Assembly: GCA_964017235.1 (NCBI GenBank)
Contig: OZ024936.1
Coordinates: 12,562,496-12,626,495 of the forward strand
DNA: 64,000 nt
Direction of reading: 5' to 3'
Source of the DNA: Sabellastarte sp. h YS-2021
Taxonomy: Eukaryota; Annelida; Polychaeta; Sabellida; Sabellidae
Part shown: positions 1 to 64,000 of the stretch, piece by piece
How positions within the stretch are numbered: position 1 is the first letter of the stretch
Layout: each line of letters starts with the position of its first letter
Notes under the pieces: model-generated
The model's input: only the letters and a program-made list of their open reading frames with translations
Databases searched by the model: none
What the model was told of the DNA's origin: nothing
Program-made: the position numbers and the translations under genes

Positions 1-143
1 TTTTGGTCGTTCCGAGGGACACCAATTTTTTTCCACCAATGGATAGAGTGGTCCAGTCTGAGTCTATACAATATAACAGGGTAGGGTCTAAAGACCTTAA
101 TTTCGTAGATATGAGCAGAAACAGTATTTCCCATTGATTTTAA
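1..143. repeat. Partial monomer at the left edge
   Basis: This is the last 143 bp of a monomer cut by the window boundary. The variable box is missing, so the class is not visible directly. Position 1 corresponds to 31715 in the 31,714-bp duplicate, where the monomer (31665-31857) is S1, so S1 is likely here. Confidence 0.9.
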
Positions 144-344
144 ATGGGGATTTTGCCATGCATATACACTAGTACAGGTGCCTTACCATCGAGTACGCCA
201 ATTTTGGTCGTTCCGAGGGACACCAATTTTTTTCCACCAATGGATAGAGTGGTCCAGTCTGAGTCTATACAATATAACAGGGTAGGGTCTAAAGACCTTA
301 ATTTCGTAGATATGAGCAGAAACAGTATTTCCCATTGATTTTAA
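144..344. repeat. Type example of long monomer class L1 (201 bp)
   Basis: L1 carries TGCCATGCAT at monomer positions 11-20, followed by ATACACTA, which the 193-bp monomers lack, and then GTACAGGTGCC. The box contains the palindromes ATGCAT and ACTAGT. There are 87 complete L1 copies. Relative to S1 the box differs by the 8-bp indel and seven substitutions, all transitions. L1 sub-variants are L1k (C to G at 1312 and 33026) and L1c (CAGTCTCAGTC, monomers starting 17384, 20319, 26390 and 29518). Confidence 0.95.
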
Positions 345-545
345 ATGGGGATTTTGCAATGCATATACACTAGTACAGGTGCCTTACCATCGAGTACGCC
401 AATTTTGGTCGTTCCGAGGGACACCAATTTTTTTCCACCAATGGATAGAGTGGTCCAGTCTGAGTCTATACAATATAACAGGGTAGGGTCTAAAGACCTT
501 AATTTCGTAGATATGAGCAGAAACAGTATTTCCCATTGATTTTAA
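345..545. repeat. Type example of long monomer class L2 (201 bp)
   Basis: L2 is L1 with TGCAATGCAT instead of TGCCATGCAT in the box. The 20 complete copies start at 345, 2709, 4486, 7236, 11731, 13307, 19925, 22860, 24436, 29124, 32059, 34423, 36200, 38950, 43445, 45021, 49701, 55933, 58273 and 60613. L2 is never followed by S2 or S3. The copies at 19925 and 29124 also carry the AGACTGG change (L2p). Confidence 0.95.
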
Positions 546-738
546 ATGGGGATTTCGTCGTACATGTGTAGATGCCTTACCATCGAGTACGCCAATTTTG
601 GTCGTTCCGAGGGACACCAATTTTTTTCCACCAATGGATAGAGTGGTCCAGTCTGAGTCTATACAATATAACAGGGTAGGGTCTAAAGACCTTAATTTCG
701 TAGATATGAGCAGAAACAGTATTTCCCATTGATTTTAA
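546..738. repeat. Type example of short monomer class S1 (193 bp)
   Basis: S1 has the box CGTCGTACAT followed by GTGTAGATGCC, then CTTACCATCGAG. It is the commonest class, with 106 complete copies, and has seven CpGs. Sub-variants are S1k (AAAGAGT for AAACAGT; monomers 18357, 21292, 27363, 30491), an AAACACC form (11932, 43646) and a 192-bp form with one fewer T (61594). Confidence 0.95.
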
Positions 739-939
739 ATGGGGATTTTGCCATGCATATACACTAGTACAGGTGCCTTACCATCGAGTACGCCAATTTT
801 GGTCGTTCCGAGGGACACCAATTTTTTTCCACCAATGGATAGAGTGGTCCAGTCTGAGTCTATACAATATAACAGGGTAGGGTCTAAAGACCTTAATTTC
901 GTAGATATGAGCAGAAACAGTATTTCCCATTGATTTTAA

Positions 940-1132
940 ATGGGGATTTCGTCATACATGTGTAGATGCCGTACGATCGAGTACGCCAATTTTGGTCATT
1001 CCGAGGGACACCAATTTTTTTCCACCAATGGATAGAGTGGTCCAGTCTGAGTCTATACAATATAACAGGGTAGGGTCTAAAGACCTTAATTTCGTAGATA
1101 TGAGCAGAAACAGTATTTCCCATTGATTTTAA
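940..1132. repeat. Type example of short monomer class S2
   Basis: S2 has CGTCATACAT in the box, CCGTACGATCG in place of CCTTACCATCG, and GTCATT in place of GTCGTT. There are 31 copies, from 940 to 63145. Every S2 directly follows an L1 monomer, so the pair L1-S2 behaves as a 394-bp dimer unit. The class contains the overlapping palindromes CGTACG and CGATCG. Confidence 0.95.
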
Positions 1133-1928
1133 ATGGGGATTTTGCCATGCATATACACTAGTACAGGTGCCTTACCATCGAGTACGCCAATTTTGGTCGT
1201 TCCGAGGGACACCAATTTTTTTCCACCAATGGATAGAGTGGTCCAGTCTGAGTCTATACAATATAACAGGGTAGGGTCTAAAGACCTTAATTTCGTAGAT
1301 ATGAGCAGAAAGAGTATTTCCCATTGATTTTAAATGGGGATTTTGCCATGCATATACACTAGTACAGGTGCCTTACCATCGAGTACGCCAATTTTGGTCG
1401 TTCCGAGGGACACCAATTTTTTTCCACCAATGGATAGAGTGGTCCAGTCTGAGTCTATACAATATAACAGGGTAGGGTCTAAAGACCTTAATTTCGTAGA
1501 TATGAGCAGAAACAGTATTTCCCATTGATTTTAAATGGGGATTTCGTCGTACATGTGTAGATGCCTTACCATCGAGTACGCCAATTTTGGTCGTTCCGAG
1601 GGACACCAATTTTTTTCCACCAATGGATAGAGTGGTCCAGTCTGAGTCTATACAATATAACAGGGTAGGGTCTAAAGACCTTAATTTCGTAGATATGAGC
1701 AGAAACAGTATTTCCCATTGATTTTAAATGGGGATTTTGCCATGCATATACACTAGTACAGGTGCCTTACCATCGAGTACGCCAATTTTGGTCGTTCCGA
1801 GGGACACCAATTTTTTTCCACCAATGGATAGAGTGGTCCAGTCTGAGTCTATACAATATAACAGGGTAGGGTCTAAAGACCTTAATTTCGTAGATATGAG
1901 CAGAAACAGTATTTCCCATTGATTTTAA

Positions 1929-2121
1929 ATGGGGATTTCGTCATACATGTGTAGATGCCGTACGATCGAGTACGCCAATTTTGGTCGTTCCGAGGGACAC
2001 CAATTTTTTTCCACCAATGGATAGAGTGGTCCAGTCTGAGTCTATACAATATAACAGGGTAGGGTCTAAAGACCTTAATTTCGTAGATATGAGCAGAAAC
2101 AGTATTTCCCATTGATTTTAA
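1929..2121. repeat. Type example of short monomer class S3
   Basis: S3 is like S2 but keeps GTCGTT. The 19 copies start at 1929, 3899, 5475, 10155, 16226, 19145, 22080, 23849, 28151, 31279, 33643, 35613, 37189, 41869, 47940, 48921, 54172, 55153 and 63724. S3 follows either L1 or S6. S2 is most simply S3 with one CpG to CpA transition. Confidence 0.93.
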
Positions 2122-5100
2122 ATGGGGATTTCGTCGTACATGTGTAGATGCCTTACCATCGAGTACGCCAATTTTGGTCGTTCCGAGGGACACCAATTTT
2201 TTTCCACCAATGGATAGAGTGGTCCAGTCTGAGTCTATACAATATAACAGGGTAGGGTCTAAAGACCTTAATTTCGTAGATATGAGCAGAAACAGTATTT
2301 CCCATTGATTTTAAATGGGGATTTCGTCGTACATGTGTAGATGCCTTACCATCGAGTACGCCAATTTTGGTCGTTCCGAGGGACACCAATTTTTTTCCAC
2401 CAATGGATAGAGTGGTCCAGTCTGAGTCTATACAATATAACAGGGTAGGGTCTAAAGACCTTAATTTCGTAGATATGAGCAGAAACAGTATTTCCCATTG
2501 ATTTTAAATGGGGATTTTGCCATGCATATACACTAGTACAGGTGCCTTACCATCGAGTACGCCAATTTTGGTCGTTCCGAGGGACACCAATTTTTTTCCA
2601 CCAATGGATAGAGTGGTCCAGTCTGAGTCTATACAATATAACAGGGTAGGGTCTAAAGACCTTAATTTCGTAGATATGAGCAGAAACAGTATTTCCCATT
2701 GATTTTAAATGGGGATTTTGCAATGCATATACACTAGTACAGGTGCCTTACCATCGAGTACGCCAATTTTGGTCGTTCCGAGGGACACCAATTTTTTTCC
2801 ACCAATGGATAGAGTGGTCCAGTCTGAGTCTATACAATATAACAGGGTAGGGTCTAAAGACCTTAATTTCGTAGATATGAGCAGAAACAGTATTTCCCAT
2901 TGATTTTAAATGGGGATTTCGTCGTACATGTGTAGATGCCTTACCATCGAGTACGCCAATTTTGGTCGTTCCGAGGGACACCAATTTTTTTCCACCAATG
3001 GATAGAGTGGTCCAGTCTGAGTCTATACAATATAACAGGGTAGGGTCTAAAGACCTTAATTTCGTAGATATGAGCAGAAACAGTATTTCCCATTGATTTT
3101 AAATGGGGATTTTGCCATGCATATACACTAGTACAGGTGCCTTACCATCGAGTACGCCAATTTTGGTCGTTCCGAGGGACACCAATTTTTTTCCACCAAT
3201 GGATAGAGTGGTCCAGTCTGAGTCTATACAATATAACAGGGTAGGGTCTAAAGACCTTAATTTCGTAGATATGAGCAGAAACAGTATTTCCCATTGATTT
3301 TAAATGGGGATTTCGTCATACATGTGTAGATGCCGTACGATCGAGTACGCCAATTTTGGTCATTCCGAGGGACACCAATTTTTTTCCACCAATGGATAGA
3401 GTGGTCCAGTCTGAGTCTATACAATATAACAGGGTAGGGTCTAAAGACCTTAATTTCGTAGATATGAGCAGAAACAGTATTTCCCATTGATTTTAAATGG
3501 GGATTTTGCCATGCATATACACTAGTACAGGTGCCTTACCATCGAGTACGCCAATTTTGGTCGTTCCGAGGGACACCAATTTTTTTCCACCAATGGATAG
3601 AGTGGTCCAGTCTGAGTCTATACAATATAACAGGGTAGGGTCTAAAGACCTTAATTTCGTAGATATGAGCAGAAACAGTATTTCCCATTGATTTTAAATG
3701 GGGATTTTGCCATGCATATACACTAGTACAGGTGCCTTACCATCGAGTACGCCAATTTTGGTCGTTCCGAGGGACACCAATTTTTTTCCACCAATGGATA
3801 GAGTGGTCCAGTCTGAGTCTATACAATATAACAGGGTAGGGTCTAAAGACCTTAATTTCGTAGATATGAGCAGAAACAGTATTTCCCATTGATTTTAAAT
3901 GGGGATTTCGTCATACATGTGTAGATGCCGTACGATCGAGTACGCCAATTTTGGTCGTTCCGAGGGACACCAATTTTTTTCCACCAATGGATAGAGTGGT
4001 CCAGTCTGAGTCTATACAATATAACAGGGTAGGGTCTAAAGACCTTAATTTCGTAGATATGAGCAGAAACAGTATTTCCCATTGATTTTAAATGGGGATT
4101 TCGTCGTACATGTGTAGATGCCTTACCATCGAGTACGCCAATTTTGGTCGTTCCGAGGGACACCAATTTTTTTCCACCAATGGATAGAGTGGTCCAGTCT
4201 GAGTCTATACAATATAACAGGGTAGGGTCTAAAGACCTTAATTTCGTAGATATGAGCAGAAACAGTATTTCCCATTGATTTTAAATGGGGATTTTGCCAT
4301 GCATATACACTAGTACAGGTGCCTTACCATCGAGTACGCCAATTTTGGTCGTTCCGAGGGACACCAATTTTTTTCCACCAATGGATAGAGTGGTCCAGTC
4401 TGAGTCTATACAATATAACAGGGTAGGGTCTAAAGACCTTAATTTCGTAGATATGAGCAGAAACAGTATTTCCCATTGATTTTAAATGGGGATTTTGCAA
4501 TGCATATACACTAGTACAGGTGCCTTACCATCGAGTACGCCAATTTTGGTCGTTCCGAGGGACACCAATTTTTTTCCACCAATGGATAGAGTGGTCCAGT
4601 CTGAGTCTATACAATATAACAGGGTAGGGTCTAAAGACCTTAATTTCGTAGATATGAGCAGAAACAGTATTTCCCATTGATTTTAAATGGGGATTTCGTC
4701 GTACATGTGTAGATGCCTTACCATCGAGTACGCCAATTTTGGTCGTTCCGAGGGACACCAATTTTTTTCCACCAATGGATAGAGTGGTCCAGTCTGAGTC
4801 TATACAATATAACAGGGTAGGGTCTAAAGACCTTAATTTCGTAGATATGAGCAGAAACAGTATTTCCCATTGATTTTAAATGGGGATTTTGCCATGCATA
4901 TACACTAGTACAGGTGCCTTACCATCGAGTACGCCAATTTTGGTCGTTCCGAGGGACACCAATTTTTTTCCACCAATGGATAGAGTGGTCCAGTCTGAGT
5001 CTATACAATATAACAGGGTAGGGTCTAAAGACCTTAATTTCGTAGATATGAGCAGAAACAGTATTTCCCATTGATTTTAAATGGGGATTTCGTCATACAT

Positions 5101-7436
5101 GTGTAGATGCCGTACGATCGAGTACGCCAATTTTGGTCATTCCGAGGGACACCAATTTTTTTCCACCAATGGATAGAGTGGTCCAGTCTGAGTCTATACA
5201 ATATAACAGGGTAGGGTCTAAAGACCTTAATTTCGTAGATATGAGCAGAAACAGTATTTCCCATTGATTTTAAATGGGGATTTTGCCATGCATATACACT
5301 AGTACAGGTGCCTTACCATCGAGTACGCCAATTTTGGTCGTTCCGAGGGACACCAATTTTTTTCCACCAATGGATAGAGTGGTCCAGTCTGAGTCTATAC
5401 AATATAACAGGGTAGGGTCTAAAGACCTTAATTTCGTAGATATGAGCAGAAACAGTATTTCCCATTGATTTTAAATGGGGATTTCGTCATACATGTGTAG
5501 ATGCCGTACGATCGAGTACGCCAATTTTGGTCGTTCCGAGGGACACCAATTTTTTTCCACCAATGGATAGAGTGGTCCAGTCTGAGTCTATACAATATAA
5601 CAGGGTAGGGTCTAAAGACCTTAATTTCGTAGATATGAGCAGAAACAGTATTTCCCATTGATTTTAAATGGGGATTTCGTCGTACATGTGTAGATGCCTT
5701 ACCATCGAGTACGCCAATTTTGGTCGTTCCGAGGGACACCAATTTTTTTCCACCAATGGATAGAGTGGTCCAGTCTGAGTCTATACAATATAACAGGGTA
5801 GGGTCTAAAGACCTTAATTTCGTAGATATGAGCAGAAACAGTATTTCCCATTGATTTTAAATGGGGATTTCGTCGTACATGTGTAGATGCCTTACCATCG
5901 AGTACGCCAATTTTGGTCGTTCCGAGGGACACCAATTTTTTTCCACCAATGGATAGAGTGGTCCAGTCTGAGTCTATACAATATAACAGGGTAGGGTCTA
6001 AAGACCTTAATTTCGTAGATATGAGCAGAAACAGTATTTCCCATTGATTTTAAATGGGGATTTTGCCATGCATATACACTAGTACAGGTGCCTTACCATC
6101 GAGTACGCCAATTTTGGTCGTTCCGAGGGACACCAATTTTTTTCCACCAATGGATAGAGTGGTCCAGTCTGAGTCTATACAATATAACAGGGTAGGGTCT
6201 AAAGACCTTAATTTCGTAGATATGAGCAGAAACAGTATTTCCCATTGATTTTAAATGGGGATTTTGCCATGCATATACACTAGTACAGGTGCCTTACCAT
6301 CGAGTACGCCAATTTTGGTCGTTCCGAGGGACACCAATTTTTTTCCACCAATGGATAGAGTGGTCCAGTCTGAGTCTATACAATATAACAGGGTAGGGTC
6401 TAAAGACCTTAATTTCGTAGATATGAGCAGAAACAGTATTTCCCATTGATTTTAAATGGGGATTTCGTCATACATGTGTAGATGCCGTACGATCGAGTAC
6501 GCCAATTTTGGTCATTCCGAGGGACACCAATTTTTTTCCACCAATGGATAGAGTGGTCCAGTCTGAGTCTATACAATATAACAGGGTAGGGTCTAAAGAC
6601 CTTAATTTCGTAGATATGAGCAGAAACAGTATTTCCCATTGATTTTAAATGGGGATTTTGCCATGCATATACACTAGTACAGGTGCCTTACCATCGAGTA
6701 CGCCAATTTTGGTCGTTCCGAGGGACACCAATTTTTTTCCACCAATGGATAGAGTGGTCCAGTCTGAGTCTATACAATATAACAGGGTAGGGTCTAAAGA
6801 CCTTAATTTCGTAGATATGAGCAGAAACAGTATTTCCCATTGATTTTAAATGGGGATTTCGTCGTACATGTGTAGATGCCTTACCATCGAGTACGCCAAT
6901 TTTGGTCGTTCCGAGGGACACCAATTTTTTTCCACCAATGGATAGAGTGGTCCAGTCTGAGTCTATACAATATAACAGGGTAGGGTCTAAAGACCTTAAT
7001 TTCGTAGATATGAGCAGAAACAGTATTTCCCATTGATTTTAAATGGGGATTTCGTCGTACATGTGTAGATGCCTTACCATCGAGTACGCCAATTTTGGTC
7101 GTTCCGAGGGACACCAATTTTTTTCCACCAATGGATAGAGTGGTCCAGTCTGAGTCTATACAATATAACAGGGTAGGGTCTAAAGACCTTAATTTCGTAG
7201 ATATGAGCAGAAACAGTATTTCCCATTGATTTTAAATGGGGATTTTGCAATGCATATACACTAGTACAGGTGCCTTACCATCGAGTACGCCAATTTTGGT
7301 CGTTCCGAGGGACACCAATTTTTTTCCACCAATGGATAGAGTGGTCCAGTCTGAGTCTATACAATATAACAGGGTAGGGTCTAAAGACCTTAATTTCGTA
7401 GATATGAGCAGAAACAGTATTTCCCATTGATTTTAA

Positions 7437-7629
7437 ATGGGGATTTCGTCATACATGTGTAGATGCCTTACCATGGAGTACGCCAATTTTGGTCGTTCCG
7501 AGGGACACCAATTTTTTTCCACCAATGGATAGAGTGGTCCAGTCTGAGTCTATACAATATAACAGGGTAGGGTCTAAAGACCTTAATTTCGTAGATATGA
7601 GCAGAAACAGTATTTCCCATTGATTTTAA
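7437..7629. repeat. Type example of short monomer class S4
   Basis: S4 has CGTCATACAT with CCTTACCATGGAG, where other S1-like monomers have CATCGAG. The nine copies start at 7437, 13508, 25425, 39151, 45222, 49902, 56134, 58474 and 60814. Eight of the nine follow an L2 monomer; the one at 25425 follows S1. Confidence 0.93.
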
Positions 7630-8602
7630 ATGGGGATTTCGTCGTACATGTGTAGATGCCTTACCATCGAGTACGCCAATTTTGGTCGTTCCGAGGGACA
7701 CCAATTTTTTTCCACCAATGGATAGAGTGGTCCAGTCTGAGTCTATACAATATAACAGGGTAGGGTCTAAAGACCTTAATTTCGTAGATATGAGCAGAAA
7801 CAGTATTTCCCATTGATTTTAAATGGGGATTTTGCCATGCATATACACTAGTACAGGTGCCTTACCATCGAGTACGCCAATTTTGGTCGTTCCGAGGGAC
7901 ACCAATTTTTTTCCACCAATGGATAGAGTGGTCCAGTCTGAGTCTATACAATATAACAGGGTAGGGTCTAAAGACCTTAATTTCGTAGATATGAGCAGAA
8001 ACAGTATTTCCCATTGATTTTAAATGGGGATTTCGTCATACATGTGTAGATGCCGTACGATCGAGTACGCCAATTTTGGTCATTCCGAGGGACACCAATT
8101 TTTTTCCACCAATGGATAGAGTGGTCCAGTCTGAGTCTATACAATATAACAGGGTAGGGTCTAAAGACCTTAATTTCGTAGATATGAGCAGAAACAGTAT
8201 TTCCCATTGATTTTAAATGGGGATTTCGTCGTACATGTGTAGATGCCTTACCATCGAGTACGCCAATTTTGGTCGTTCCGAGGGACACCAATTTTTTTCC
8301 ACCAATGGATAGAGTGGTCCAGTCTGAGTCTATACAATATAACAGGGTAGGGTCTAAAGACCTTAATTTCGTAGATATGAGCAGAAACAGTATTTCCCAT
8401 TGATTTTAAATGGGGATTTCGTCGTACATGTGTAGATGCCTTACCATCGAGTACGCCAATTTTGGTCGTTCCGAGGGACACCAATTTTTTTCCACCAATG
8501 GATAGAGTGGTCCAGTCTGAGTCTATACAATATAACAGGGTAGGGTCTAAAGACCTTAATTTCGTAGATATGAGCAGAAACAGTATTTCCCATTGATTTT
8601 AA

Positions 8603-8795
8603 ATGGGGATTTCGTCGTACATGTGTAGATGCCGTACGATCGAGTACGCCAATTTTGGTCGTTCCGAGGGACACCAATTTTTTTCCACCAATGGATAGAC
8701 TGGTCCAGTCTGAGTCTATACAATATAACAGGGTAGGGTCTAAAGACCTTAATTTCGTAGATATGAGCAGAAACAGTATTTCCCATTGATTTTAA
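8603..8795. repeat. Type example of short monomer class S7
   Basis: S7 combines the S1 box (CGTCGTACAT) with the S2/S3-type CCGTACGATCG and the S6-type AGACTGG, so it looks like a mosaic of three classes. The eight copies start at 8603, 14674, 40317, 46388, 51068, 52620, 57300 and 59640. Each is followed by S5. Confidence 0.92.
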
Positions 8796-8988
8796 ATGGG
8801 GATTTTGTCGTACATGTGTAGATGCCTTACCATCGAGTACGCCAATTTTGGTCGTTCCGAGGGACACCAATTTTTTTCCACCAATTGATAGAGTGGTCCA
8901 GTCTGAGTCTATACAATATAACAGGGTAGGGTCTAAAGACCTTAATTTCGTAGATATGAGCAAAAACAGTATTTCCCATTGATTTTAA
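8796..8988. repeat. Type example of short monomer class S5
   Basis: S5 carries three linked changes: TGTCGTACAT in the box, CCACCAATTG for CCACCAATGG, and GAGCAAAAAC for GAGCAGAAAC. They travel together in all 22 copies, which start at 8796, 9182, 14867, 15253, 16805, 17191, 20126, 25811, 26197, 29325, 40510, 40896, 46581, 46967, 51261, 52813, 53199, 57493, 59833, 62172, 62558 and 62751. Confidence 0.94.
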
Positions 8989-9181
8989 ATGGGGATTTCG
9001 TCGTACATGTGTAGATGCCTTACCATCGAGTACGCCAATTTTGGTCGTTCCGAGGGACACCAATTTTTTTCCACCAATGGATAGACTGGTCCAGTCTGAG
9101 TCTATACAATATAACAGGGTAGGGTCTAAAGACCTTAATTTCGTAGATATGAGCAGAAACAGTATTTCCCATTGATTTTAA
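8989..9181. repeat. Type example of short monomer class S6
   Basis: S6 is S1 with AGACTGG for AGAGTGG at monomer positions 95-101. The change completes a 15-bp inverted repeat, AGACTGG-T-CCAGTCT. The 19 copies start at 8989, 9962, 15060, 16033, 16998, 17971, 20906, 26004, 26977, 30105, 40703, 41676, 46774, 47747, 53006, 53979, 61979, 62365 and 63531. Confidence 0.93.
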
Positions 9182-10540
9182 ATGGGGATTTTGTCGTACA
9201 TGTGTAGATGCCTTACCATCGAGTACGCCAATTTTGGTCGTTCCGAGGGACACCAATTTTTTTCCACCAATTGATAGAGTGGTCCAGTCTGAGTCTATAC
9301 AATATAACAGGGTAGGGTCTAAAGACCTTAATTTCGTAGATATGAGCAAAAACAGTATTTCCCATTGATTTTAAATGGGGATTTTGCCATGCATATACAC
9401 TAGTACAGGTGCCTTACCATCGAGTACGCCAATTTTGGTCGTTCCGAGGGACACCAATTTTTTTCCACCAATGGATAGAGTGGTCCAGTCTGAGTCTATA
9501 CAATATAACAGGGTAGGGTCTAAAGACCTTAATTTCGTAGATATGAGCAGAAACAGTATTTCCCATTGATTTTAAATGGGGATTTCGTCATACATGTGTA
9601 GATGCCGTACGATCGAGTACGCCAATTTTGGTCATTCCGAGGGACACCAATTTTTTTCCACCAATGGATAGAGTGGTCCAGTCTGAGTCTATACAATATA
9701 ACAGGGTAGGGTCTAAAGACCTTAATTTCGTAGATATGAGCAGAAACAGTATTTCCCATTGATTTTAAATGGGGATTTCGTCGTACATGTGTAGATGCCT
9801 TACCATCGAGTACGCCAATTTTGGTCGTTCCGAGGGACACCAATTTTTTTCCACCAATGGATAGAGTGGTCCAGTCTGAGTCTATACAATATAACAGGGT
9901 AGGGTCTAAAGACCTTAATTTCGTAGATATGAGCAGAAACAGTATTTCCCATTGATTTTAAATGGGGATTTCGTCGTACATGTGTAGATGCCTTACCATC
10001 GAGTACGCCAATTTTGGTCGTTCCGAGGGACACCAATTTTTTTCCACCAATGGATAGACTGGTCCAGTCTGAGTCTATACAATATAACAGGGTAGGGTCT
10101 AAAGACCTTAATTTCGTAGATATGAGCAGAAACAGTATTTCCCATTGATTTTAAATGGGGATTTCGTCATACATGTGTAGATGCCGTACGATCGAGTACG
10201 CCAATTTTGGTCGTTCCGAGGGACACCAATTTTTTTCCACCAATGGATAGAGTGGTCCAGTCTGAGTCTATACAATATAACAGGGTAGGGTCTAAAGACC
10301 TTAATTTCGTAGATATGAGCAGAAACAGTATTTCCCATTGATTTTAAATGGGGATTTCGTCGTACATGTGTAGATGCCTTACCATCGAGTACGCCAATTT
10401 TGGTCGTTCCGAGGGACACCAATTTTTTTCCACCAATGGATAGAGTGGTCCAGTCTGAGTCTATACAATATAACAGGGTAGGGTCTAAAGACCTTAATTT
10501 CGTAGATATGAGCAGAAACAGTATTTCCCATTGATTTTAA

Positions 10541-48000: not shown

Positions 48001-48325
48001 CCGAGGGACACCAATTTTTTTCCACCAATGGATAGAGTGGTCCAGTCTGAGTCTATACAATATAACAGGGTAGGGTCTAAAGACCTTAATTTCGTAGATA
48101 TGAGCAGAAACAGTATTTCCCATTGATTTTAAATGGGGATTTCGTCGTACATGTGTAGATGCCTTACCATCGAGTACGCCAATTTTGGTCGTTCCGAGGG
48201 ACACCAATTTTTTTCCACCAATGGATAGAGTGGTCCAGTCTGAGTCTATACAATATAACAGGGTAGGGTCTAAAGACCTTAATTTCGTAGATATGAGCAG
48301 AAACAGTATTTCCCATTGATTTTAA
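45021..48325. repeat. 17-monomer unit (3,305 bp), copy 4
   Basis: Class order as at 13307-16611. Unlike that copy it is followed by L1-S1-L1-S3-S1-S1, so the 31,714-bp-offset identity ends at its right edge. Confidence 0.92.
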
Positions 48326-50094: not shown

Positions 50095-51839
50095 ATGGGG
50101 ATTTCGTCGTACATGTGTAGATGCCTTACCATCGAGTACGCCAATTTTGGTCGTTCCGAGGGACACCAATTTTTTTCCACCAATGGATAGAGTGGTCCAG
50201 TCTGAGTCTATACAATATAACAGGGTAGGGTCTAAAGACCTTAATTTCGTAGATATGAGCAGAAACAGTATTTCCCATTGATTTTAAATGGGGATTTTGC
50301 CATGCATATACACTAGTACAGGTGCCTTACCATCGAGTACGCCAATTTTGGTCGTTCCGAGGGACACCAATTTTTTTCCACCAATGGATAGAGTGGTCCA
50401 GTCTGAGTCTATACAATATAACAGGGTAGGGTCTAAAGACCTTAATTTCGTAGATATGAGCAGAAACAGTATTTCCCATTGATTTTAAATGGGGATTTCG
50501 TCATACATGTGTAGATGCCGTACGATCGAGTACGCCAATTTTGGTCATTCCGAGGGACACCAATTTTTTTCCACCAATGGATAGAGTGGTCCAGTCTGAG
50601 TCTATACAATATAACAGGGTAGGGTCTAAAGACCTTAATTTCGTAGATATGAGCAGAAACAGTATTTCCCATTGATTTTAAATGGGGATTTCGTCGTACA
50701 TGTGTAGATGCCTTACCATCGAGTACGCCAATTTTGGTCGTTCCGAGGGACACCAATTTTTTTCCACCAATGGATAGAGTGGTCCAGTCTGAGTCTATAC
50801 AATATAACAGGGTAGGGTCTAAAGACCTTAATTTCGTAGATATGAGCAGAAACAGTATTTCCCATTGATTTTAAATGGGGATTTCGTCGTACATGTGTAG
50901 ATGCCTTACCATCGAGTACGCCAATTTTGGTCGTTCCGAGGGACACCAATTTTTTTCCACCAATGGATAGAGTGGTCCAGTCTGAGTCTATACAATATAA
51001 CAGGGTAGGGTCTAAAGACCTTAATTTCGTAGATATGAGCAGAAACAGTATTTCCCATTGATTTTAAATGGGGATTTCGTCGTACATGTGTAGATGCCGT
51101 ACGATCGAGTACGCCAATTTTGGTCGTTCCGAGGGACACCAATTTTTTTCCACCAATGGATAGACTGGTCCAGTCTGAGTCTATACAATATAACAGGGTA
51201 GGGTCTAAAGACCTTAATTTCGTAGATATGAGCAGAAACAGTATTTCCCATTGATTTTAAATGGGGATTTTGTCGTACATGTGTAGATGCCTTACCATCG
51301 AGTACGCCAATTTTGGTCGTTCCGAGGGACACCAATTTTTTTCCACCAATTGATAGAGTGGTCCAGTCTGAGTCTATACAATATAACAGGGTAGGGTCTA
51401 AAGACCTTAATTTCGTAGATATGAGCAAAAACAGTATTTCCCATTGATTTTAAATGGGGATTTCGTCGTACATGTGTAGATGCCTTACCATCGAGTACGC
51501 CAATTTTGGTCGTTCCGAGGGACACCAATTTTTTTCCACCAATGGATAGAGTGGTCCAGTCTGAGTCTATACAATATAACAGGGTAGGGTCTAAAGACCT
51601 TAATTTCGTAGATATGAGCAGAAACAGTATTTCCCATTGATTTTAAATGGGGATTTCGTCGTACATGTGTAGATGCCTTACCATCGAGTACGCCAATTTT
51701 GGTCGTTCCGAGGGACACCAATTTTTTTCCACCAATGGATAGAGTGGTCCAGTCTGAGTCTATACAATATAACAGGGTAGGGTCTAAAGACCTTAATTTC
51801 GTAGATATGAGCAGAAACAGTATTTCCCATTGATTTTAA
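49500..51839. repeat. 12-monomer unit (2,340 bp), isolated copy
   Basis: The order is L1-L2-S4-S1-L1-S2-S1-S1-S7-S5-S1-S1. The same unit occurs at 55732 and 58072. S5-S1-S1 replaces the S5-S6-S5 of the 17-monomer unit. Confidence 0.92.
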
Positions 51840-54557: not shown

Positions 54558-56326
54558 ATGGGGATTTTGCCATGCATATACACTAGTACAGGTGCCTTAC
54601 CATCGAGTACGCCAATTTTGGTCGTTCCGAGGGACACCAATTTTTTTCCACCAATGGATAGAGTGGTCCAGTCTGAGTCTATACAATATAACAGGGTAGG
54701 GTCTAAAGACCTTAATTTCGTAGATATGAGCAGAAACAGTATTTCCCATTGATTTTAAATGGGGATTTCGTCGTACATGTGTAGATGCCTTACCATCGAG
54801 TACGCCAATTTTGGTCGTTCCGAGGGACACCAATTTTTTTCCACCAATGGATAGAGTGGTCCAGTCTGAGTCTATACAATATAACAGGGTAGGGTCTAAA
54901 GACCTTAATTTCGTAGATATGAGCAGAAACAGTATTTCCCATTGATTTTAAATGGGGATTTTGCCATGCATATACACTAGTACAGGTGCCTTACCATCGA
55001 GTACGCCAATTTTGGTCGTTCCGAGGGACACCAATTTTTTTCCACCAATGGATAGAGTGGTCCAGTCTGAGTCTATACAATATAACAGGGTAGGGTCTAA
55101 AGACCTTAATTTCGTAGATATGAGCAGAAACAGTATTTCCCATTGATTTTAAATGGGGATTTCGTCATACATGTGTAGATGCCGTACGATCGAGTACGCC
55201 AATTTTGGTCGTTCCGAGGGACACCAATTTTTTTCCACCAATGGATAGAGTGGTCCAGTCTGAGTCTATACAATATAACAGGGTAGGGTCTAAAGACCTT
55301 AATTTCGTAGATATGAGCAGAAACAGTATTTCCCATTGATTTTAAATGGGGATTTCGTCGTACATGTGTAGATGCCTTACCATCGAGTACGCCAATTTTG
55401 GTCGTTCCGAGGGACACCAATTTTTTTCCACCAATGGATAGAGTGGTCCAGTCTGAGTCTATACAATATAACAGGGTAGGGTCTAAAGACCTTAATTTCG
55501 TAGATATGAGCAGAAACAGTATTTCCCATTGATTTTAAATGGGGATTTCGTCGTACATGTGTAGATGCCTTACCATCGAGTACGCCAATTTTGGTCGTTC
55601 CGAGGGACACCAATTTTTTTCCACCAATGGATAGAGTGGTCCAGTCTGAGTCTATACAATATAACAGGGTAGGGTCTAAAGACCTTAATTTCGTAGATAT
55701 GAGCAGAAACAGTATTTCCCATTGATTTTAAATGGGGATTTTGCCATGCATATACACTAGTACAGGTGCCTTACCATCGAGTACGCCAATTTTGGTCGTT
55801 CCGAGGGACACCAATTTTTTTCCACCAATGGATAGAGTGGTCCAGTCTGAGTCTATACAATATAACAGGGTAGGGTCTAAAGACCTTAATTTCGTAGATA
55901 TGAGCAGAAACAGTATTTCCCATTGATTTTAAATGGGGATTTTGCAATGCATATACACTAGTACAGGTGCCTTACCATCGAGTACGCCAATTTTGGTCGT
56001 TCCGAGGGACACCAATTTTTTTCCACCAATGGATAGAGTGGTCCAGTCTGAGTCTATACAATATAACAGGGTAGGGTCTAAAGACCTTAATTTCGTAGAT
56101 ATGAGCAGAAACAGTATTTCCCATTGATTTTAAATGGGGATTTCGTCATACATGTGTAGATGCCTTACCATGGAGTACGCCAATTTTGGTCGTTCCGAGG
56201 GACACCAATTTTTTTCCACCAATGGATAGAGTGGTCCAGTCTGAGTCTATACAATATAACAGGGTAGGGTCTAAAGACCTTAATTTCGTAGATATGAGCA
56301 GAAACAGTATTTCCCATTGATTTTAA
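53392..56326. repeat. 15-monomer unit (2,935 bp), plain lineage, copy 2
   Basis: The class order is the same as 47160-50094, displaced by 6,232 bp as part of the tandem duplication. Confidence 0.9.
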
Positions 56327-58071
56327 ATGGGGATTTCGTCGTACATGTGTAGATGCCTTACCATCGAGTACGCCAATTTTGGTCGTTCCGAGGGACACCA
56401 ATTTTTTTCCACCAATGGATAGAGTGGTCCAGTCTGAGTCTATACAATATAACAGGGTAGGGTCTAAAGACCTTAATTTCGTAGATATGAGCAGAAACAG
56501 TATTTCCCATTGATTTTAAATGGGGATTTTGCCATGCATATACACTAGTACAGGTGCCTTACCATCGAGTACGCCAATTTTGGTCGTTCCGAGGGACACC
56601 AATTTTTTTCCACCAATGGATAGAGTGGTCCAGTCTGAGTCTATACAATATAACAGGGTAGGGTCTAAAGACCTTAATTTCGTAGATATGAGCAGAAACA
56701 GTATTTCCCATTGATTTTAAATGGGGATTTCGTCATACATGTGTAGATGCCGTACGATCGAGTACGCCAATTTTGGTCATTCCGAGGGACACCAATTTTT
56801 TTCCACCAATGGATAGAGTGGTCCAGTCTGAGTCTATACAATATAACAGGGTAGGGTCTAAAGACCTTAATTTCGTAGATATGAGCAGAAACAGTATTTC
56901 CCATTGATTTTAAATGGGGATTTCGTCGTACATGTGTAGATGCCTTACCATCGAGTACGCCAATTTTGGTCGTTCCGAGGGACACCAATTTTTTTCCACC
57001 AATGGATAGAGTGGTCCAGTCTGAGTCTATACAATATAACAGGGTAGGGTCTAAAGACCTTAATTTCGTAGATATGAGCAGAAACAGTATTTCCCATTGA
57101 TTTTAAATGGGGATTTCGTCGTACATGTGTAGATGCCTTACCATCGAGTACGCCAATTTTGGTCGTTCCGAGGGACACCAATTTTTTTCCACCAATGGAT
57201 AGAGTGGTCCAGTCTGAGTCTATACAATATAACAGGGTAGGGTCTAAAGACCTTAATTTCGTAGATATGAGCAGAAACAGTATTTCCCATTGATTTTAAA
57301 TGGGGATTTCGTCGTACATGTGTAGATGCCGTACGATCGAGTACGCCAATTTTGGTCGTTCCGAGGGACACCAATTTTTTTCCACCAATGGATAGACTGG
57401 TCCAGTCTGAGTCTATACAATATAACAGGGTAGGGTCTAAAGACCTTAATTTCGTAGATATGAGCAGAAACAGTATTTCCCATTGATTTTAAATGGGGAT
57501 TTTGTCGTACATGTGTAGATGCCTTACCATCGAGTACGCCAATTTTGGTCGTTCCGAGGGACACCAATTTTTTTCCACCAATTGATAGAGTGGTCCAGTC
57601 TGAGTCTATACAATATAACAGGGTAGGGTCTAAAGACCTTAATTTCGTAGATATGAGCAAAAACAGTATTTCCCATTGATTTTAAATGGGGATTTCGTCG
57701 TACATGTGTAGATGCCTTACCATCGAGTACGCCAATTTTGGTCGTTCCGAGGGACACCAATTTTTTTCCACCAATGGATAGAGTGGTCCAGTCTGAGTCT
57801 ATACAATATAACAGGGTAGGGTCTAAAGACCTTAATTTCGTAGATATGAGCAGAAACAGTATTTCCCATTGATTTTAAATGGGGATTTCGTCGTACATGT
57901 GTAGATGCCTTACCATCGAGTACGCCAATTTTGGTCGTTCCGAGGGACACCAATTTTTTTCCACCAATGGATAGAGTGGTCCAGTCTGAGTCTATACAAT
58001 ATAACAGGGTAGGGTCTAAAGACCTTAATTTCGTAGATATGAGCAGAAACAGTATTTCCCATTGATTTTAA
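55732..58071. repeat. 12-monomer unit (2,340 bp), tandem copy 1
   Basis: The order is L1-L2-S4-S1-L1-S2-S1-S1-S7-S5-S1-S1. It is followed directly by an identical class string. Confidence 0.93.
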
Positions 58072-60411
58072 ATGGGGATTTTGCCATGCATATACACTAG
58101 TACAGGTGCCTTACCATCGAGTACGCCAATTTTGGTCGTTCCGAGGGACACCAATTTTTTTCCACCAATGGATAGAGTGGTCCAGTCTGAGTCTATACAA
58201 TATAACAGGGTAGGGTCTAAAGACCTTAATTTCGTAGATATGAGCAGAAACAGTATTTCCCATTGATTTTAAATGGGGATTTTGCAATGCATATACACTA
58301 GTACAGGTGCCTTACCATCGAGTACGCCAATTTTGGTCGTTCCGAGGGACACCAATTTTTTTCCACCAATGGATAGAGTGGTCCAGTCTGAGTCTATACA
58401 ATATAACAGGGTAGGGTCTAAAGACCTTAATTTCGTAGATATGAGCAGAAACAGTATTTCCCATTGATTTTAAATGGGGATTTCGTCATACATGTGTAGA
58501 TGCCTTACCATGGAGTACGCCAATTTTGGTCGTTCCGAGGGACACCAATTTTTTTCCACCAATGGATAGAGTGGTCCAGTCTGAGTCTATACAATATAAC
58601 AGGGTAGGGTCTAAAGACCTTAATTTCGTAGATATGAGCAGAAACAGTATTTCCCATTGATTTTAAATGGGGATTTCGTCGTACATGTGTAGATGCCTTA
58701 CCATCGAGTACGCCAATTTTGGTCGTTCCGAGGGACACCAATTTTTTTCCACCAATGGATAGAGTGGTCCAGTCTGAGTCTATACAATATAACAGGGTAG
58801 GGTCTAAAGACCTTAATTTCGTAGATATGAGCAGAAACAGTATTTCCCATTGATTTTAAATGGGGATTTTGCCATGCATATACACTAGTACAGGTGCCTT
58901 ACCATCGAGTACGCCAATTTTGGTCGTTCCGAGGGACACCAATTTTTTTCCACCAATGGATAGAGTGGTCCAGTCTGAGTCTATACAATATAACAGGGTA
59001 GGGTCTAAAGACCTTAATTTCGTAGATATGAGCAGAAACAGTATTTCCCATTGATTTTAAATGGGGATTTCGTCATACATGTGTAGATGCCGTACGATCG
59101 AGTACGCCAATTTTGGTCATTCCGAGGGACACCAATTTTTTTCCACCAATGGATAGAGTGGTCCAGTCTGAGTCTATACAATATAACAGGGTAGGGTCTA
59201 AAGACCTTAATTTCGTAGATATGAGCAGAAACAGTATTTCCCATTGATTTTAAATGGGGATTTCGTCGTACATGTGTAGATGCCTTACCATCGAGTACGC
59301 CAATTTTGGTCGTTCCGAGGGACACCAATTTTTTTCCACCAATGGATAGAGTGGTCCAGTCTGAGTCTATACAATATAACAGGGTAGGGTCTAAAGACCT
59401 TAATTTCGTAGATATGAGCAGAAACAGTATTTCCCATTGATTTTAAATGGGGATTTCGTCGTACATGTGTAGATGCCTTACCATCGAGTACGCCAATTTT
59501 GGTCGTTCCGAGGGACACCAATTTTTTTCCACCAATGGATAGAGTGGTCCAGTCTGAGTCTATACAATATAACAGGGTAGGGTCTAAAGACCTTAATTTC
59601 GTAGATATGAGCAGAAACAGTATTTCCCATTGATTTTAAATGGGGATTTCGTCGTACATGTGTAGATGCCGTACGATCGAGTACGCCAATTTTGGTCGTT
59701 CCGAGGGACACCAATTTTTTTCCACCAATGGATAGACTGGTCCAGTCTGAGTCTATACAATATAACAGGGTAGGGTCTAAAGACCTTAATTTCGTAGATA
59801 TGAGCAGAAACAGTATTTCCCATTGATTTTAAATGGGGATTTTGTCGTACATGTGTAGATGCCTTACCATCGAGTACGCCAATTTTGGTCGTTCCGAGGG
59901 ACACCAATTTTTTTCCACCAATTGATAGAGTGGTCCAGTCTGAGTCTATACAATATAACAGGGTAGGGTCTAAAGACCTTAATTTCGTAGATATGAGCAA
60001 AAACAGTATTTCCCATTGATTTTAAATGGGGATTTCGTCGTACATGTGTAGATGCCTTACCATCGAGTACGCCAATTTTGGTCGTTCCGAGGGACACCAA
60101 TTTTTTTCCACCAATGGATAGAGTGGTCCAGTCTGAGTCTATACAATATAACAGGGTAGGGTCTAAAGACCTTAATTTCGTAGATATGAGCAGAAACAGT
60201 ATTTCCCATTGATTTTAAATGGGGATTTCGTCGTACATGTGTAGATGCCTTACCATCGAGTACGCCAATTTTGGTCGTTCCGAGGGACACCAATTTTTTT
60301 CCACCAATGGATAGAGTGGTCCAGTCTGAGTCTATACAATATAACAGGGTAGGGTCTAAAGACCTTAATTTCGTAGATATGAGCAGAAACAGTATTTCCC
60401 ATTGATTTTAA
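58072..60411. repeat. 12-monomer unit (2,340 bp), tandem copy 2
   Basis: Second adjacent copy with the same class order and exact 2,340-bp spacing. This is the only place in the window where complete copies of the 12-monomer unit are adjacent. Confidence 0.93.
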
Positions 60412-61593
60412 ATGGGGATTTTGCCATGCATATACACTAGTACAGGTGCCTTACCATCGAGTACGCCAATTTTGGTCGTTCCGAGGGACACCAATTTTTT
60501 TCCACCAATGGATAGAGTGGTCCAGTCTGAGTCTATACAATATAACAGGGTAGGGTCTAAAGACCTTAATTTCGTAGATATGAGCAGAAACAGTATTTCC
60601 CATTGATTTTAAATGGGGATTTTGCAATGCATATACACTAGTACAGGTGCCTTACCATCGAGTACGCCAATTTTGGTCGTTCCGAGGGACACCAATTTTT
60701 TTCCACCAATGGATAGAGTGGTCCAGTCTGAGTCTATACAATATAACAGGGTAGGGTCTAAAGACCTTAATTTCGTAGATATGAGCAGAAACAGTATTTC
60801 CCATTGATTTTAAATGGGGATTTCGTCATACATGTGTAGATGCCTTACCATGGAGTACGCCAATTTTGGTCGTTCCGAGGGACACCAATTTTTTTCCACC
60901 AATGGATAGAGTGGTCCAGTCTGAGTCTATACAATATAACAGGGTAGGGTCTAAAGACCTTAATTTCGTAGATATGAGCAGAAACAGTATTTCCCATTGA
61001 TTTTAAATGGGGATTTCGTCGTACATGTGTAGATGCCTTACCATCGAGTACGCCAATTTTGGTCGTTCCGAGGGACACCAATTTTTTTCCACCAATGGAT
61101 AGAGTGGTCCAGTCTGAGTCTATACAATATAACAGGGTAGGGTCTAAAGACCTTAATTTCGTAGATATGAGCAGAAACAGTATTTCCCATTGATTTTAAA
61201 TGGGGATTTTGCCATGCATATACACTAGTACAGGTGCCTTACCATCGAGTACGCCAATTTTGGTCGTTCCGAGGGACACCAATTTTTTTCCACCAATGGA
61301 TAGAGTGGTCCAGTCTGAGTCTATACAATATAACAGGGTAGGGTCTAAAGACCTTAATTTCGTAGATATGAGCAGAAACAGTATTTCCCATTGATTTTAA
61401 ATGGGGATTTCGTCATACATGTGTAGATGCCGTACGATCGAGTACGCCAATTTTGGTCATTCCGAGGGACACCAATTTTTTTCCACCAATGGATAGAGTG
61501 GTCCAGTCTGAGTCTATACAATATAACAGGGTAGGGTCTAAAGACCTTAATTTCGTAGATATGAGCAGAAACAGTATTTCCCATTGATTTTAA

Positions 61594-61785
61594 ATGGGGA
61601 TTTCGTCGTACATGTGTAGATGCCTTACCATCGAGTACGCCAATTTTGGTCGTTCCGAGGGACACCAATTTTTTCCACCAATGGATAGAGTGGTCCAGTC
61701 TGAGTCTATACAATATAACAGGGTAGGGTCTAAAGACCTTAATTTCGTAGATATGAGCAGAAACAGTATTTCCCATTGATTTTAA
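61594..61785. repeat. 192-bp S1 monomer with a T6 tract
   Basis: The run that is T7 elsewhere is T6 at 61669-61674. It is the only length change in 326 monomers apart from the 193/201 dimorphism. It also fuses two reverse-strand reading frames into a spurious 168-codon frame. Confidence 0.95.
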
Positions 61786-62750
61786 ATGGGGATTTCGTCG
61801 TACATGTGTAGATGCCTTACCATCGAGTACGCCAATTTTGGTCGTTCCGAGGGACACCAATTTTTTTCCACCAATGGATAGAGTGGTCCAGTCTGAGTCT
61901 ATACAATATAACAGGGTAGGGTCTAAAGACCTTAATTTCGTAGATATGAGCAGAAACAGTATTTCCCATTGATTTTAAATGGGGATTTCGTCGTACATGT
62001 GTAGATGCCTTACCATCGAGTACGCCAATTTTGGTCGTTCCGAGGGACACCAATTTTTTTCCACCAATGGATAGACTGGTCCAGTCTGAGTCTATACAAT
62101 ATAACAGGGTAGGGTCTAAAGACCTTAATTTCGTAGATATGAGCAGAAACAGTATTTCCCATTGATTTTAAATGGGGATTTTGTCGTACATGTGTAGATG
62201 CCTTACCATCGAGTACGCCAATTTTGGTCGTTCCGAGGGACACCAATTTTTTTCCACCAATTGATAGAGTGGTCCAGTCTGAGTCTATACAATATAACAG
62301 GGTAGGGTCTAAAGACCTTAATTTCGTAGATATGAGCAAAAACAGTATTTCCCATTGATTTTAAATGGGGATTTCGTCGTACATGTGTAGATGCCTTACC
62401 ATCGAGTACGCCAATTTTGGTCGTTCCGAGGGACACCAATTTTTTTCCACCAATGGATAGACTGGTCCAGTCTGAGTCTATACAATATAACAGGGTAGGG
62501 TCTAAAGACCTTAATTTCGTAGATATGAGCAGAAACAGTATTTCCCATTGATTTTAAATGGGGATTTTGTCGTACATGTGTAGATGCCTTACCATCGAGT
62601 ACGCCAATTTTGGTCGTTCCGAGGGACACCAATTTTTTTCCACCAATTGATAGAGTGGTCCAGTCTCAGTCTATACAATATAACAGGGTAGGGTCTAAAG
62701 ACCTTAATTTCGTAGATATGAGCAAAAACAGTATTTCCCATTGATTTTAA

Positions 62751-62943
62751 ATGGGGATTTTGTCGTACATGTGTAGATGCCTTACCATCGAGTACGCCAA
62801 TTTTGGTCGTTCCGAGGGACACCAATTTTATTCCACCAATTGATAGAGTGGTCCAGTCTGAGTCTATACAATATAACAGGGTAGGGTCTAAAGACCTTAA
62901 TTTCGTAGATATGAGCAAAAACAGTATTTCCCATTGATTTTAA
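62751..62943. repeat. S5 monomer with an interrupted T tract
   Basis: The T7 tract reads TTTTATT, with A at 62830. No other monomer has this substitution. It is the second of two adjacent S5 monomers. Confidence 0.95.
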
Positions 62944-64000
62944 ATGGGGATTTTGCCATGCATATACACTAGTACAGGTGCCTTACCATCGAGTACGCCA
63001 ATTTTGGTCGTTCCGAGGGACACCAATTTTTTTCCACCAATGGATAGAGTGGTCCAGTCTGAGTCTATACAATATAACAGGGTAGGGTCTAAAGACCTTA
63101 ATTTCGTAGATATGAGCAGAAACAGTATTTCCCATTGATTTTAAATGGGGATTTCGTCATACATGTGTAGATGCCGTACGATCGAGTACGCCAATTTTGG
63201 TCATTCCGAGGGACACCAATTTTTTTCCACCAATGGATAGAGTGGTCCAGTCTGAGTCTATACAATATAACAGGGTAGGGTCTAAAGACCTTAATTTCGT
63301 AGATATGAGCAGAAACAGTATTTCCCATTGATTTTAAATGGGGATTTCGTCGTACATGTGTAGATGCCTTACCATCGAGTACGCCAATTTTGGTCGTTCC
63401 GAGGGACACCAATTTTTTTCCACCAATGGATAGAGTGGTCCAGTCTGAGTCTATACAATATAACAGGGTAGGGTCTAAAGACCTTAATTTCGTAGATATG
63501 AGCAGAAACAGTATTTCCCATTGATTTTAAATGGGGATTTCGTCGTACATGTGTAGATGCCTTACCATCGAGTACGCCAATTTTGGTCGTTCCGAGGGAC
63601 ACCAATTTTTTTCCACCAATGGATAGACTGGTCCAGTCTGAGTCTATACAATATAACAGGGTAGGGTCTAAAGACCTTAATTTCGTAGATATGAGCAGAA
63701 ACAGTATTTCCCATTGATTTTAAATGGGGATTTCGTCATACATGTGTAGATGCCGTACGATCGAGTACGCCAATTTTGGTCGTTCCGAGGGACACCAATT
63801 TTTTTCCACCAATGGATAGAGTGGTCCAGTCTGAGTCTATACAATATAACAGGGTAGGGTCTAAAGACCTTAATTTCGTAGATATGAGCAGAAACAGTAT
63901 TTCCCATTGATTTTAAATGGGGATTTCGTCGTACATGTGTAGATGCCTTACCATCGAGTACGCCAATTTTGGTCGTTCCGAGGGACACCAATTTTTTTCC
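62944..64000. repeat. Start of a further plain-lineage unit, cut by the window edge
   Basis: The order is L1-S2-S1-S6-S3-S1(partial), which matches the first six slots of the units at 47160 and 53392. The last monomer begins at 63917 and is cut after 84 bp. Confidence 0.88.

What the first reader, a model, noticed from the sequence alone, without database searches (positions are those of the whole stretch)
1..64000. A 64-kb pure satellite with nested higher-order repeats and no interruption
All 326 complete monomers are in one orientation, with no transposon, inversion or unique spacer. Units of 12, 15 and 17 monomers are embedded in duplications of 6.2, 9 and at least 16.6 kb. Such multi-level order is established for human alphoid DNA but is described in detail for few other satellites. 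The centromeric role is inference.
Basis: partly seen in the sequence, partly recalled or inferred. Interest (0 to 1): 0.7.

Follow-up and report, generated by a model that had tools for sequence, protein, structure and literature searches.

The report
Feather-duster worm megabase satellite array
The window is an uninterrupted piece of a roughly 2.5-million-base run of near-identical 193/201-base repeats on chromosome 10 of a feather duster worm, probably at or near its centromere, and it interests because the repeats keep two versions of one short segment while the rest is shared by both.

Summary
In detail: 326 complete monomers (219 of 193 bp, 106 of 201 bp, 1 of 192 bp), one orientation, no spacer, nested exact duplications. 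The largest is 19,784 bp without a mismatch, starting 3.2 kb left of the window. The window lies in a satellite block of about 2.5 Mb. Related arrays or clusters lie on chr6-12 and chr14; chr1-5 show only scattered hits.

A textbook 13-mer HOR lies on chr11. HiFi reads average ~9 kb, so the longest duplications are not independently proven.

New: S and L monomers have the same body on chr10 and nearly so on chr11, and bodies differ between those chromosomes, whereas the S/L segment sorts mostly by type across chromosomes (chr11 S is an exception). A 14-bp core, CAATATAACAGGGT, is invariant across relatives only ~58% alike. Centromeric or pericentromeric location is likely, not shown.

The parts
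1..64000 (+). Segment of the chr10 satellite array: 326 complete head-to-tail monomers, S = 193 bp and L = 201 bp
1..16621 (+). Copy 1 (its part inside the window) of a 19,784-bp exact duplication that starts 3.16 kb left of the window; lag 31,714 bp
28552..48335 (+). Copy 2 of the 19,784-bp exact duplication
   Evidence: coordinates = copy 1 + 31,714
17044..22913 (+). Tandem 15-monomer unit, 2 copies
30537..35264 (+). Tandem 12-monomer unit, 2 copies
45268..58125 (+). Tandem 32-monomer (6.2-kb) unit, 2.06 copies
49948..53051 (+). Tandem 8-monomer unit, 2 copies, nested in the 32-mer duplication
55392..61639 (+). Tandem 12-monomer unit, 2.67 copies
19384..23701 (+). 22-monomer block repeated exactly at 28583-32900 (lag 47 monomers, 9.2 kb)
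7089..10393 (+). 17-monomer block repeated exactly at 13160-16464 and at 38803-42107 (dispersed, not tandem)

Best explanation
The window is a young, recently homogenised stretch of a ~2.5-Mb satellite block on chromosome 10 of the sabellid annelid Sabellastarte sp. h YS-2021. The block belongs to a family with clusters on chr6-12 and chr14, several of them with variants of their own. It most likely lies at or next to the chr10 centromere (inferred). It grows and is made uniform by unequal exchange and duplication of blocks of 8 to about 100 monomers, which leaves nested, irregular higher-order repeats (the repeats are shown; the process is inferred). On chr10 and chr11 the monomer body has been made alike in S and L monomers of the same chromosome, while two versions of a ~30-bp segment (S, and L with an 8-bp insertion) persist side by side (pattern shown, with chr11 S an exception). 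My guess is that the cassettes, or the invariant CAATATAACAGGGT core, are contact sites of a DNA-binding protein (inferred, weak).
For: Block: 26 of 26 sampled pieces between 11.8626 and 14.379 Mb are satellite, the only uncovered bases being a 200-N gap. Homogeneity: 34 distinct monomers among 429 over 84 kb around the window. Locality: share of monomers whose exact sequence occurs in those 84 kb is 15/19 and 10/19 at 46-50 kb, 7/19 and 13/19 at about 100 kb, 8/19 at about 200 kb, 1/19 at 0.4 Mb, and 3-7 of 19-20 in the seven pieces L017 and L039-L044 at 1.0-1.75 Mb (not monotone). Family: exact 39-mer 26,035 copies; 14-mer core 37,922 copies against 13 for the reversed control. Sites: chr6 134.83 and 135.15 Mb, chr7 33.34 and 36.87-36.92, chr8 15.7, chr9 29.08-29.10, chr10 11.86-14.5, chr11 7.96-9.99, chr12 5.2-5.8, chr14 0.34-0.63. 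Flanks: a 681-bp satellite on both sides of the chr10 block, also found as internal clusters on chr1 at 71.1 Mb and chr2 at 37.7 Mb, and a diverged 381-bp dimeric relative from 11.468 Mb. Bodies and cassettes: identical 152-bp body consensus in 754 S and 405 L; the commonest body in 364 of 754 S and 189 of 405 L; chr10 S-L body 99%, cassette flanks 74%; cassette flanks chr10L-chr7L 90%, chr10L-chr11L 88%, chr10S-chr8S 93%.
Against: No array of the family on chr1-5 (9 scattered exact 14-mer hits; the reversed control has 13 in the whole genome), so it is not a universal centromere sequence as assembled. chr13 has no hit in the listing, which sees variant copies only, so this is weak. chr7 and chr6 each have two sites. 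No CENP-A, FISH or Hi-C data. Within-chromosome homogenisation of bodies is not seen on chr7 and chr8: their copies are less like each other (86-90%) than like chr10 (90-92%), and chr12 bodies (4 monomers) are close to chr10 (95-98%). chr11 S has an L-like right flank (cassette flanks 77% to chr10S, 87% to chr11L), so cassette separation is not absolute. chr9 (21 monomers) shows S only and chr6 no L cassette. No convincing CENP-B box: best core score 7 of 9 in chr10 S (294 of 1000 shuffles reach 7), 8 of 9 in chr11 S (28 of 1000 shuffles reach 8, one of 13 consensi tried).
Confidence: 0.6

Rival explanations
1. A non-centromeric heterochromatin satellite: the block is an interstitial or subtelomeric knob amplified on a subset of chromosomes, while centromeres use other DNA (for instance the 681-bp satellite or transposons).
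For: No arrays on chr1-5; the 681-bp satellite, not this one, has internal clusters on chr1 and chr2; the chr14 array lies 0.34-0.63 Mb from the contig start; chr6 and chr7 have two sites each.
Against: Restricted clusters on chr6-12 and chr14, megabase arrays on chr10 and chr11, local multimers peculiar to chr7, chr9 and chr11, diverged relatives beside the main block.
Confidence: 0.33
2. The longest nested duplications (above about 9-15 kb) are partly assembly artefacts, made when reads shorter than the exact repeat were threaded twice.
For: 19,784 bp without a mismatch against a mean HiFi read length of 9.1 kb (figures); 136 breaks and 102 joins in curation of the whole assembly; the left edge and the orientation flip of the chr10 block coincide with 200-N gaps.
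Against: Short units (8-, 12-, 15-, 32-mers) fit within or near read length; hifiasm usually collapses exact repeats rather than duplicating them (recalled).
Confidence: 0.25
3. The S/L difference is neutral: an old 8-bp indel suppresses gene conversion around itself, and both types were seeded on each chromosome, so no function keeps them.
For: On chr10 the differences are confined to the 41 (S) or 49 (L) bp outside the shared 152-bp body; chr9 and chr6 samples lack L, as loss by drift (or an S-only ancestor) would give; the outgroup dimers lack the insertion; chr11 S is already L-like on one side.
Against: L share is similar where sampled: chr10 405 of 1159 monomers (35%), chr11 16 of 42 (38%), chr7 7 of 20 (35%), chr8 2 of 8, chr12 1 of 4, though monomers are linked and samples small.
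Confidence: 0.5

Closest known systems
Primate alpha-satellite (alphoid) DNA with HORs and A/B-box monomers (recalled)
   Same: Nucleosome-scale monomers, megabase arrays, chromosome-specific multimers, older relatives beside young core arrays; two alternative short boxes at one fixed place in the monomer.
   Different: Unrelated sequence as far as tested (no alignment to alphoid was run); window monomers ~1% apart, so no canonical HOR in the window (one exists on chr11); no significant CENP-B box; S and L do not alternate strictly.
Tribolium (peri)centromeric satellites with macro-dyad symmetries (PMC13081366, passages read)
   Same: Megabase (peri)centromeric-type regions whose arrays change orientation (without N on chr11, tightly on chr9 here).
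   Different: Different repeat lengths (~110 bp and its derivatives there); the chr10 arms are very unequal (0.54 vs about 1.97 Mb) and their junction is a scaffold gap; conserved inversion sites not tested.
Arabidopsis CEN180 arrays (recalled)
   Same: Highly similar monomers with local, irregular higher-order duplications.
   Different: Different kingdom; length dimorphism through an 8-bp insertion here.

Membership tests
Satellite DNA (tandem array) | Long head-to-tail array of near-identical units | tested here: met
   TRF 1-64000; 326 complete monomers; 26 of 26 sampled pieces of the chr10 block
Alphoid-type HOR array | A multimer repeated with near-zero difference between units and clear divergence among the monomers inside | tested here: not met
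   Window: S monomers ~1.1% apart, no dominant unit, 138 of 326 monomers in local multimers. chr11 piece L088 meets it
Alphoid-type HOR array | Chromosome-specific variants or multimers | tested here: met
   chr9 variant: 71 of 71 copies on C11; chr11 variant: 11,372 copies, the 100 listed all on C18; chr11 2,555-bp HOR, chr7 2,542-bp composite unit. Exception: chr12 monomers are close to chr10
Alphoid-type HOR array | CENP-B box | tested here: inconclusive
   chr10 S 7 of 9 core bases (294 of 1000 shuffles reach 7); chr11 S 8 of 9 (28 of 1000 shuffles reach 8; one of 13 consensi; 22 of 42 chr11 monomers score 8) (motif recalled). Not met for the window's own monomers
Centromeric satellite | Occupied by cenH3/CENP-A nucleosomes | not testable with these tools
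   No ChIP or CUT&RUN data; three other annelids have a cenH3 gene (passages of PMC12153100)
Centromeric satellite | Present at the primary constriction of all (or most) chromosomes | tested here: inconclusive
   Arrays or clusters on chr6-12 and chr14, only scattered 14-mer hits on chr1-5, chr13 unclear; constrictions not known
Tribolium-type macro-dyad satellite array | Subarrays of opposite orientation joined in continuous sequence | tested here: met
   chr11 L069 flip near 9,666,275 without N; chr9 flip with 43 bp between a hit and one. chr10, the window's own block: flip at a 200-N gap, so not shown there
Tribolium-type macro-dyad satellite array | Roughly equal arms and conserved inversion sites | tested here: inconclusive
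   chr10 arms about 0.54 and 1.97 Mb, i.e. unequal; inversion-site conservation not examined

The most novel reading that the evidence does not exclude
An annelid has independently evolved a two-box centromeric satellite: the repeat body is continually made uniform, but two alternative ~30-bp cassettes, and an invariant 14-bp core (CAATATAACAGGGT), are held by selection because different kinetochore or chromatin proteins bind them, a convergent counterpart of the alphoid A/B-box system.
Probability: 0.15. Interest if true: 0.75.

Novelty: new member of a known kind. Interest (0 to 1): 0.5.

Why it matters
The paper searches made here listed no description of an annelid centromeric satellite (9 of 9, 12 of 1,600 and 2 of 2 matching papers seen as listings; open-access library only). 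This family gives concrete sequence targets on chr10-12 for a cenH3 experiment. The contrast between a shared body and a persistent two-type cassette is an accessible test of whether short protein-binding boxes escape concerted evolution outside primates. The orientation flips would extend to an annelid a pattern that a 2026 paper (PMC13081366, passages) says is documented only in Tribolium.

Tried and rejected
Zebra mussel: I first guessed a bivalve from genome size and a flanking repeat; species-specific COI assay oligos failed on the mitochondrial locus, so rejected. Phage and plasmid matches: none. CENP-B box: not convincing. S as an inverted copy of L: a by-eye idea dropped when the family alignment showed a simple 8-bp insertion. 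chr7 as a 13-mer HOR: the regular 2,541/2,542-bp spacing turned out to be a composite unit, with 42% of the 5.2-kb piece matching the satellite and five recognisable cores per unit. DNA-mode search of the own genome returned nothing, because common words are skipped. Body homogenisation on every chromosome: dropped on re-reading, which shows it for chr10 and chr11 but not for chr7 and chr8; the odds of the novel case were lowered from 0.17 to 0.15 for that reason.

Two genome searches did not do what I meant: I wrote an ambiguity letter that still allowed the consensus base, so they list ordinary copies; I used only as such, and not at all. Listings stop at the first 100 places, in contig order, so counts are whole but places are not; one search listed all 71. 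Rows dropped before counts: units containing N (a limit of 300 bp dropped nothing); units other than 193/201 bp (1,159 of 1,186 used); units outside 150-260 bp, 170-215 bp and 185-206 bp; one search used the first 60 window monomers plus two chr10 pieces for chr10. The six rows of the core-motif shuffle test were chosen by me from 13 consensi. Samples are small for chr8 (8 monomers), chr12 (4) and chr6 (9).
Full report
What was checked. TRF covers the whole window with one array of period 193 (394 for dimers). Cutting at a fixed anchor gives 326 complete monomers: 219 of 193 bp (S), 106 of 201 bp (L), one of 192 bp, all on the + strand. Composition is flat, 40.4-41.2% in satellite pieces and 40.7% G+C over the window. 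No other sequence interrupts the array. Treating each distinct monomer as a letter, the longest string that occurs twice is 83 monomers, against a mean of 5.2 and a maximum of 8 in 100 shuffles. With 10 kb added on each side, the largest duplication is 19,784 bp without a single mismatch, at a lag of 31,714 bp. Tandem multimers of two or more copies hold 138 of 326 monomers.

Where it is. The window is C14:12562496-12626495 of a 1.786-Gb genome. Contig lengths equal Table 3 of the genome note on Sabellastarte sp. h YS-2021 (PMC13234546; I saw the outline and found passages): for example chr1 193.65, chr5 155.04, chr11 94.87 Mb, and C14+C15+C16+C17 = 102.92 Mb = chromosome 10. The words 'satellite' and 'centromer' do not occur in the main text of that note. 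HiFi yield there is 129.26 Gb in 14.21 million reads, a mean of 9.1 kb by my division.

The block. From 11.8626 Mb the satellite runs on the minus strand to a 200-N gap at about 12.407 Mb, then on the plus strand to at least 14.379 Mb; 26 of 26 sampled pieces are satellite. Outside it come a 681-bp satellite on the left (11.847-11.862 Mb) and on the right (the pieces at 14.42 and 14.45 Mb match it at 99.9-100%), a further minus-strand piece at 14.50 Mb, and a 381-bp dimeric relative on the left from 11.468 Mb (258 exact copies genome-wide, all on the reverse strand, the 100 listed all on chr10). The window is among the most homogeneous parts: 34 distinct monomers in 429 over 84 kb, against 34 in 252 just right of the gap and 72 in 204 just left of it. 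The share of monomers that exactly match those 84 kb is 15/19 and 10/19 at 46-50 kb, 7/19 and 13/19 at about 100 kb, 8/19 at about 200 kb, 1/19 at 0.4 Mb and 3-7 of 19-20 in seven pieces at 1.0-1.75 Mb. So homogenisation is local, though the decline is not smooth.

The family. The exact 39-mer core has 26,035 copies; 41 of the listed places come before chr10. Two searches with an ambiguity letter (128 and 107 hits, the first 100 of each listed) reveal arrays on chr10, chr11, chr12, chr14 and two further contigs, C24 and C37, besides the known chr7 and chr9 clusters. The 14-mer CAATATAACAGGGT has 37,922 copies against 13 for the reversed control, with 9 scattered hits on chr1-5 and a 381-bp-spaced array on chr6 at 134.83 Mb (L089). 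chr9 has a variant of its own (71 copies, all within 29.077-29.103 Mb) with partial six-monomer order (94.8% at lag 6 against 91-93% at other lags, one of 14 pairs identical). chr7 has a 2,542-bp composite unit. chr11 has a textbook HOR: 13 monomers, 2,555 bp, two units identical over 2,645 bp, monomers within the unit about 93% alike. Orientation flips occur without N on chr11 (L069, near 9,666,275) and within 43 bp on chr9.

Two cassettes. In alignment, L is S with an 8-bp insertion and a few neighbouring substitutions; relatives on chr7, chr8, chr11 and chr12 show both types, chr9 and chr6 samples no L, and the outgroup dimers lack the insertion. On chr10, 754 S and 405 L monomers have the same 152-bp body consensus; the commonest body is found in 364 S and 189 L, and 20 of 46 body variants occur in both. 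Body identity S to L equals identity within a type on chr10 (99%) and nearly so on chr11 (97.2 against 97.6-97.9), chr7 (85.3 against 86.1-87.1) and chr8 (89.6 against 89.8-90.3), so S and L are nowhere separate lineages along the body. Bodies of chr10 and chr11 differ (about 94.6%). But chr7 and chr8 bodies are less like each other within the chromosome (86-90%) than like chr10 (90-92%), so homogenisation by chromosome is shown only for chr10 and chr11; chr12 (4 monomers) is close to chr10. The 28 bp flanking the insertion behave the other way: chr10 S-L 74%, but chr10L-chr7L 90%, chr10L-chr11L 88%, chr10L-chr8L 87%, chr10S-chr8S 93%, chr10S-chr9S 89%, chr10S-chr7S 85%. The exception is chr11 S, closer to chr11 L (87%) and chr8 L (83%) than to chr10 S (77%). 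Selection is one reading; suppressed conversion around an indel is another, and I cannot separate them.

A constrained core. Among six consensi including both halves of the 381-bp dimer (54-62% identical to the rest), 78 of 195 columns are invariant, with a run of 14; shuffled columns reach 14 with frequency 0.00015. The rows were my choice, so this is suggestive. A CENP-B box is not established: the chr10 S best core score is 7 of 9, which 294 of 1000 shuffles reach; chr11 S scores 8 of 9, which 28 of 1000 shuffles reach, and it is one of 13 consensi tried, though 22 of 42 chr11 monomers carry it.

Function. Centromeric or pericentromeric location is favoured by clusters at one or two sites per chromosome, megabase size on chr10 and chr11, multimers peculiar to a chromosome and older relatives beside the core. 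Against it stand the lack of arrays on chr1-5 and of any cenH3 data. The 681-bp satellite, which flanks this block, has internal clusters on chr1 (71.1 Mb) and chr2 (37.7 Mb), but copies 91-92% alike also lie at the starts of the chr11 and chr12 contigs, so it is not a clean marker.

Literature. Searches for annelid satellites or centromeres listed nothing on an annelid centromeric satellite; I saw listings only, 12 of 1,600. Passages of PMC12153100 say three other annelids keep a cenH3 gene. Passages of PMC13081366 describe macro-dyad symmetries and state that they are documented exclusively in Tribolium to date. Comparisons with alphoid A/B boxes and Arabidopsis CEN180 are recalled.

Verdict. 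A real and well-read observation, an ordinary kind of sequence in a group where I found none described, with one feature (body shared by S and L, cassette not) that deserves a direct test.

Noticed in passing
L035:1-7366, L036:1801-10000 (chr10 11.847-11.862 Mb); L058, L081 (chr10 14.42-14.45 Mb); chr1 71.125-71.167 Mb; chr2 37.717-37.756 Mb: A 681-bp satellite (99-100% between copies at chr10) flanks the block on both sides; 6,034 exact copies of a 35-mer genome-wide (first 100 places listed), with internal clusters on chr1 and chr2; chr2 mixes 677-bp and ~885-bp spacings.
   Followed up: partly
L047, L048, L051, L064 (starts of the chr1, chr2, chr5, chr13 contigs): These contig starts share another repeat (89-93% alike), different from the 681-bp satellite whose relatives (91-92%) lie at the starts of chr11 and chr12 (L062, L063): two kinds of terminal repeat.
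   Followed up: partly
L016 (chr10 11.5625 Mb) and L089 (chr6 134.84 Mb): A 381-bp dimeric satellite, two halves only ~58% alike, is a distant relative of the window satellite and keeps the same 14-bp core.
   Followed up: partly
L087 (chr7 36.8965-36.9017 Mb): A 2,542-bp composite repeat in tandem: 42% of the piece matches the satellite, with five recognisable cores per unit and one interval of 1,706 bp.
   Followed up: partly
chr11 7.957-8.076 Mb: Short stretches of opposite orientation lie within about 2 kb of each other (hits + at 8,073,228, - at 8,074,672, + at 8,075,209).
   Followed up: no
L045:1985-4000 (chr10 14.50 Mb): Beside the right edge: AT-rich inverted-repeat stretches (TCAACATGTTGA motifs) and what looks like a tRNA-derived SINE (by eye).
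   Followed up: no
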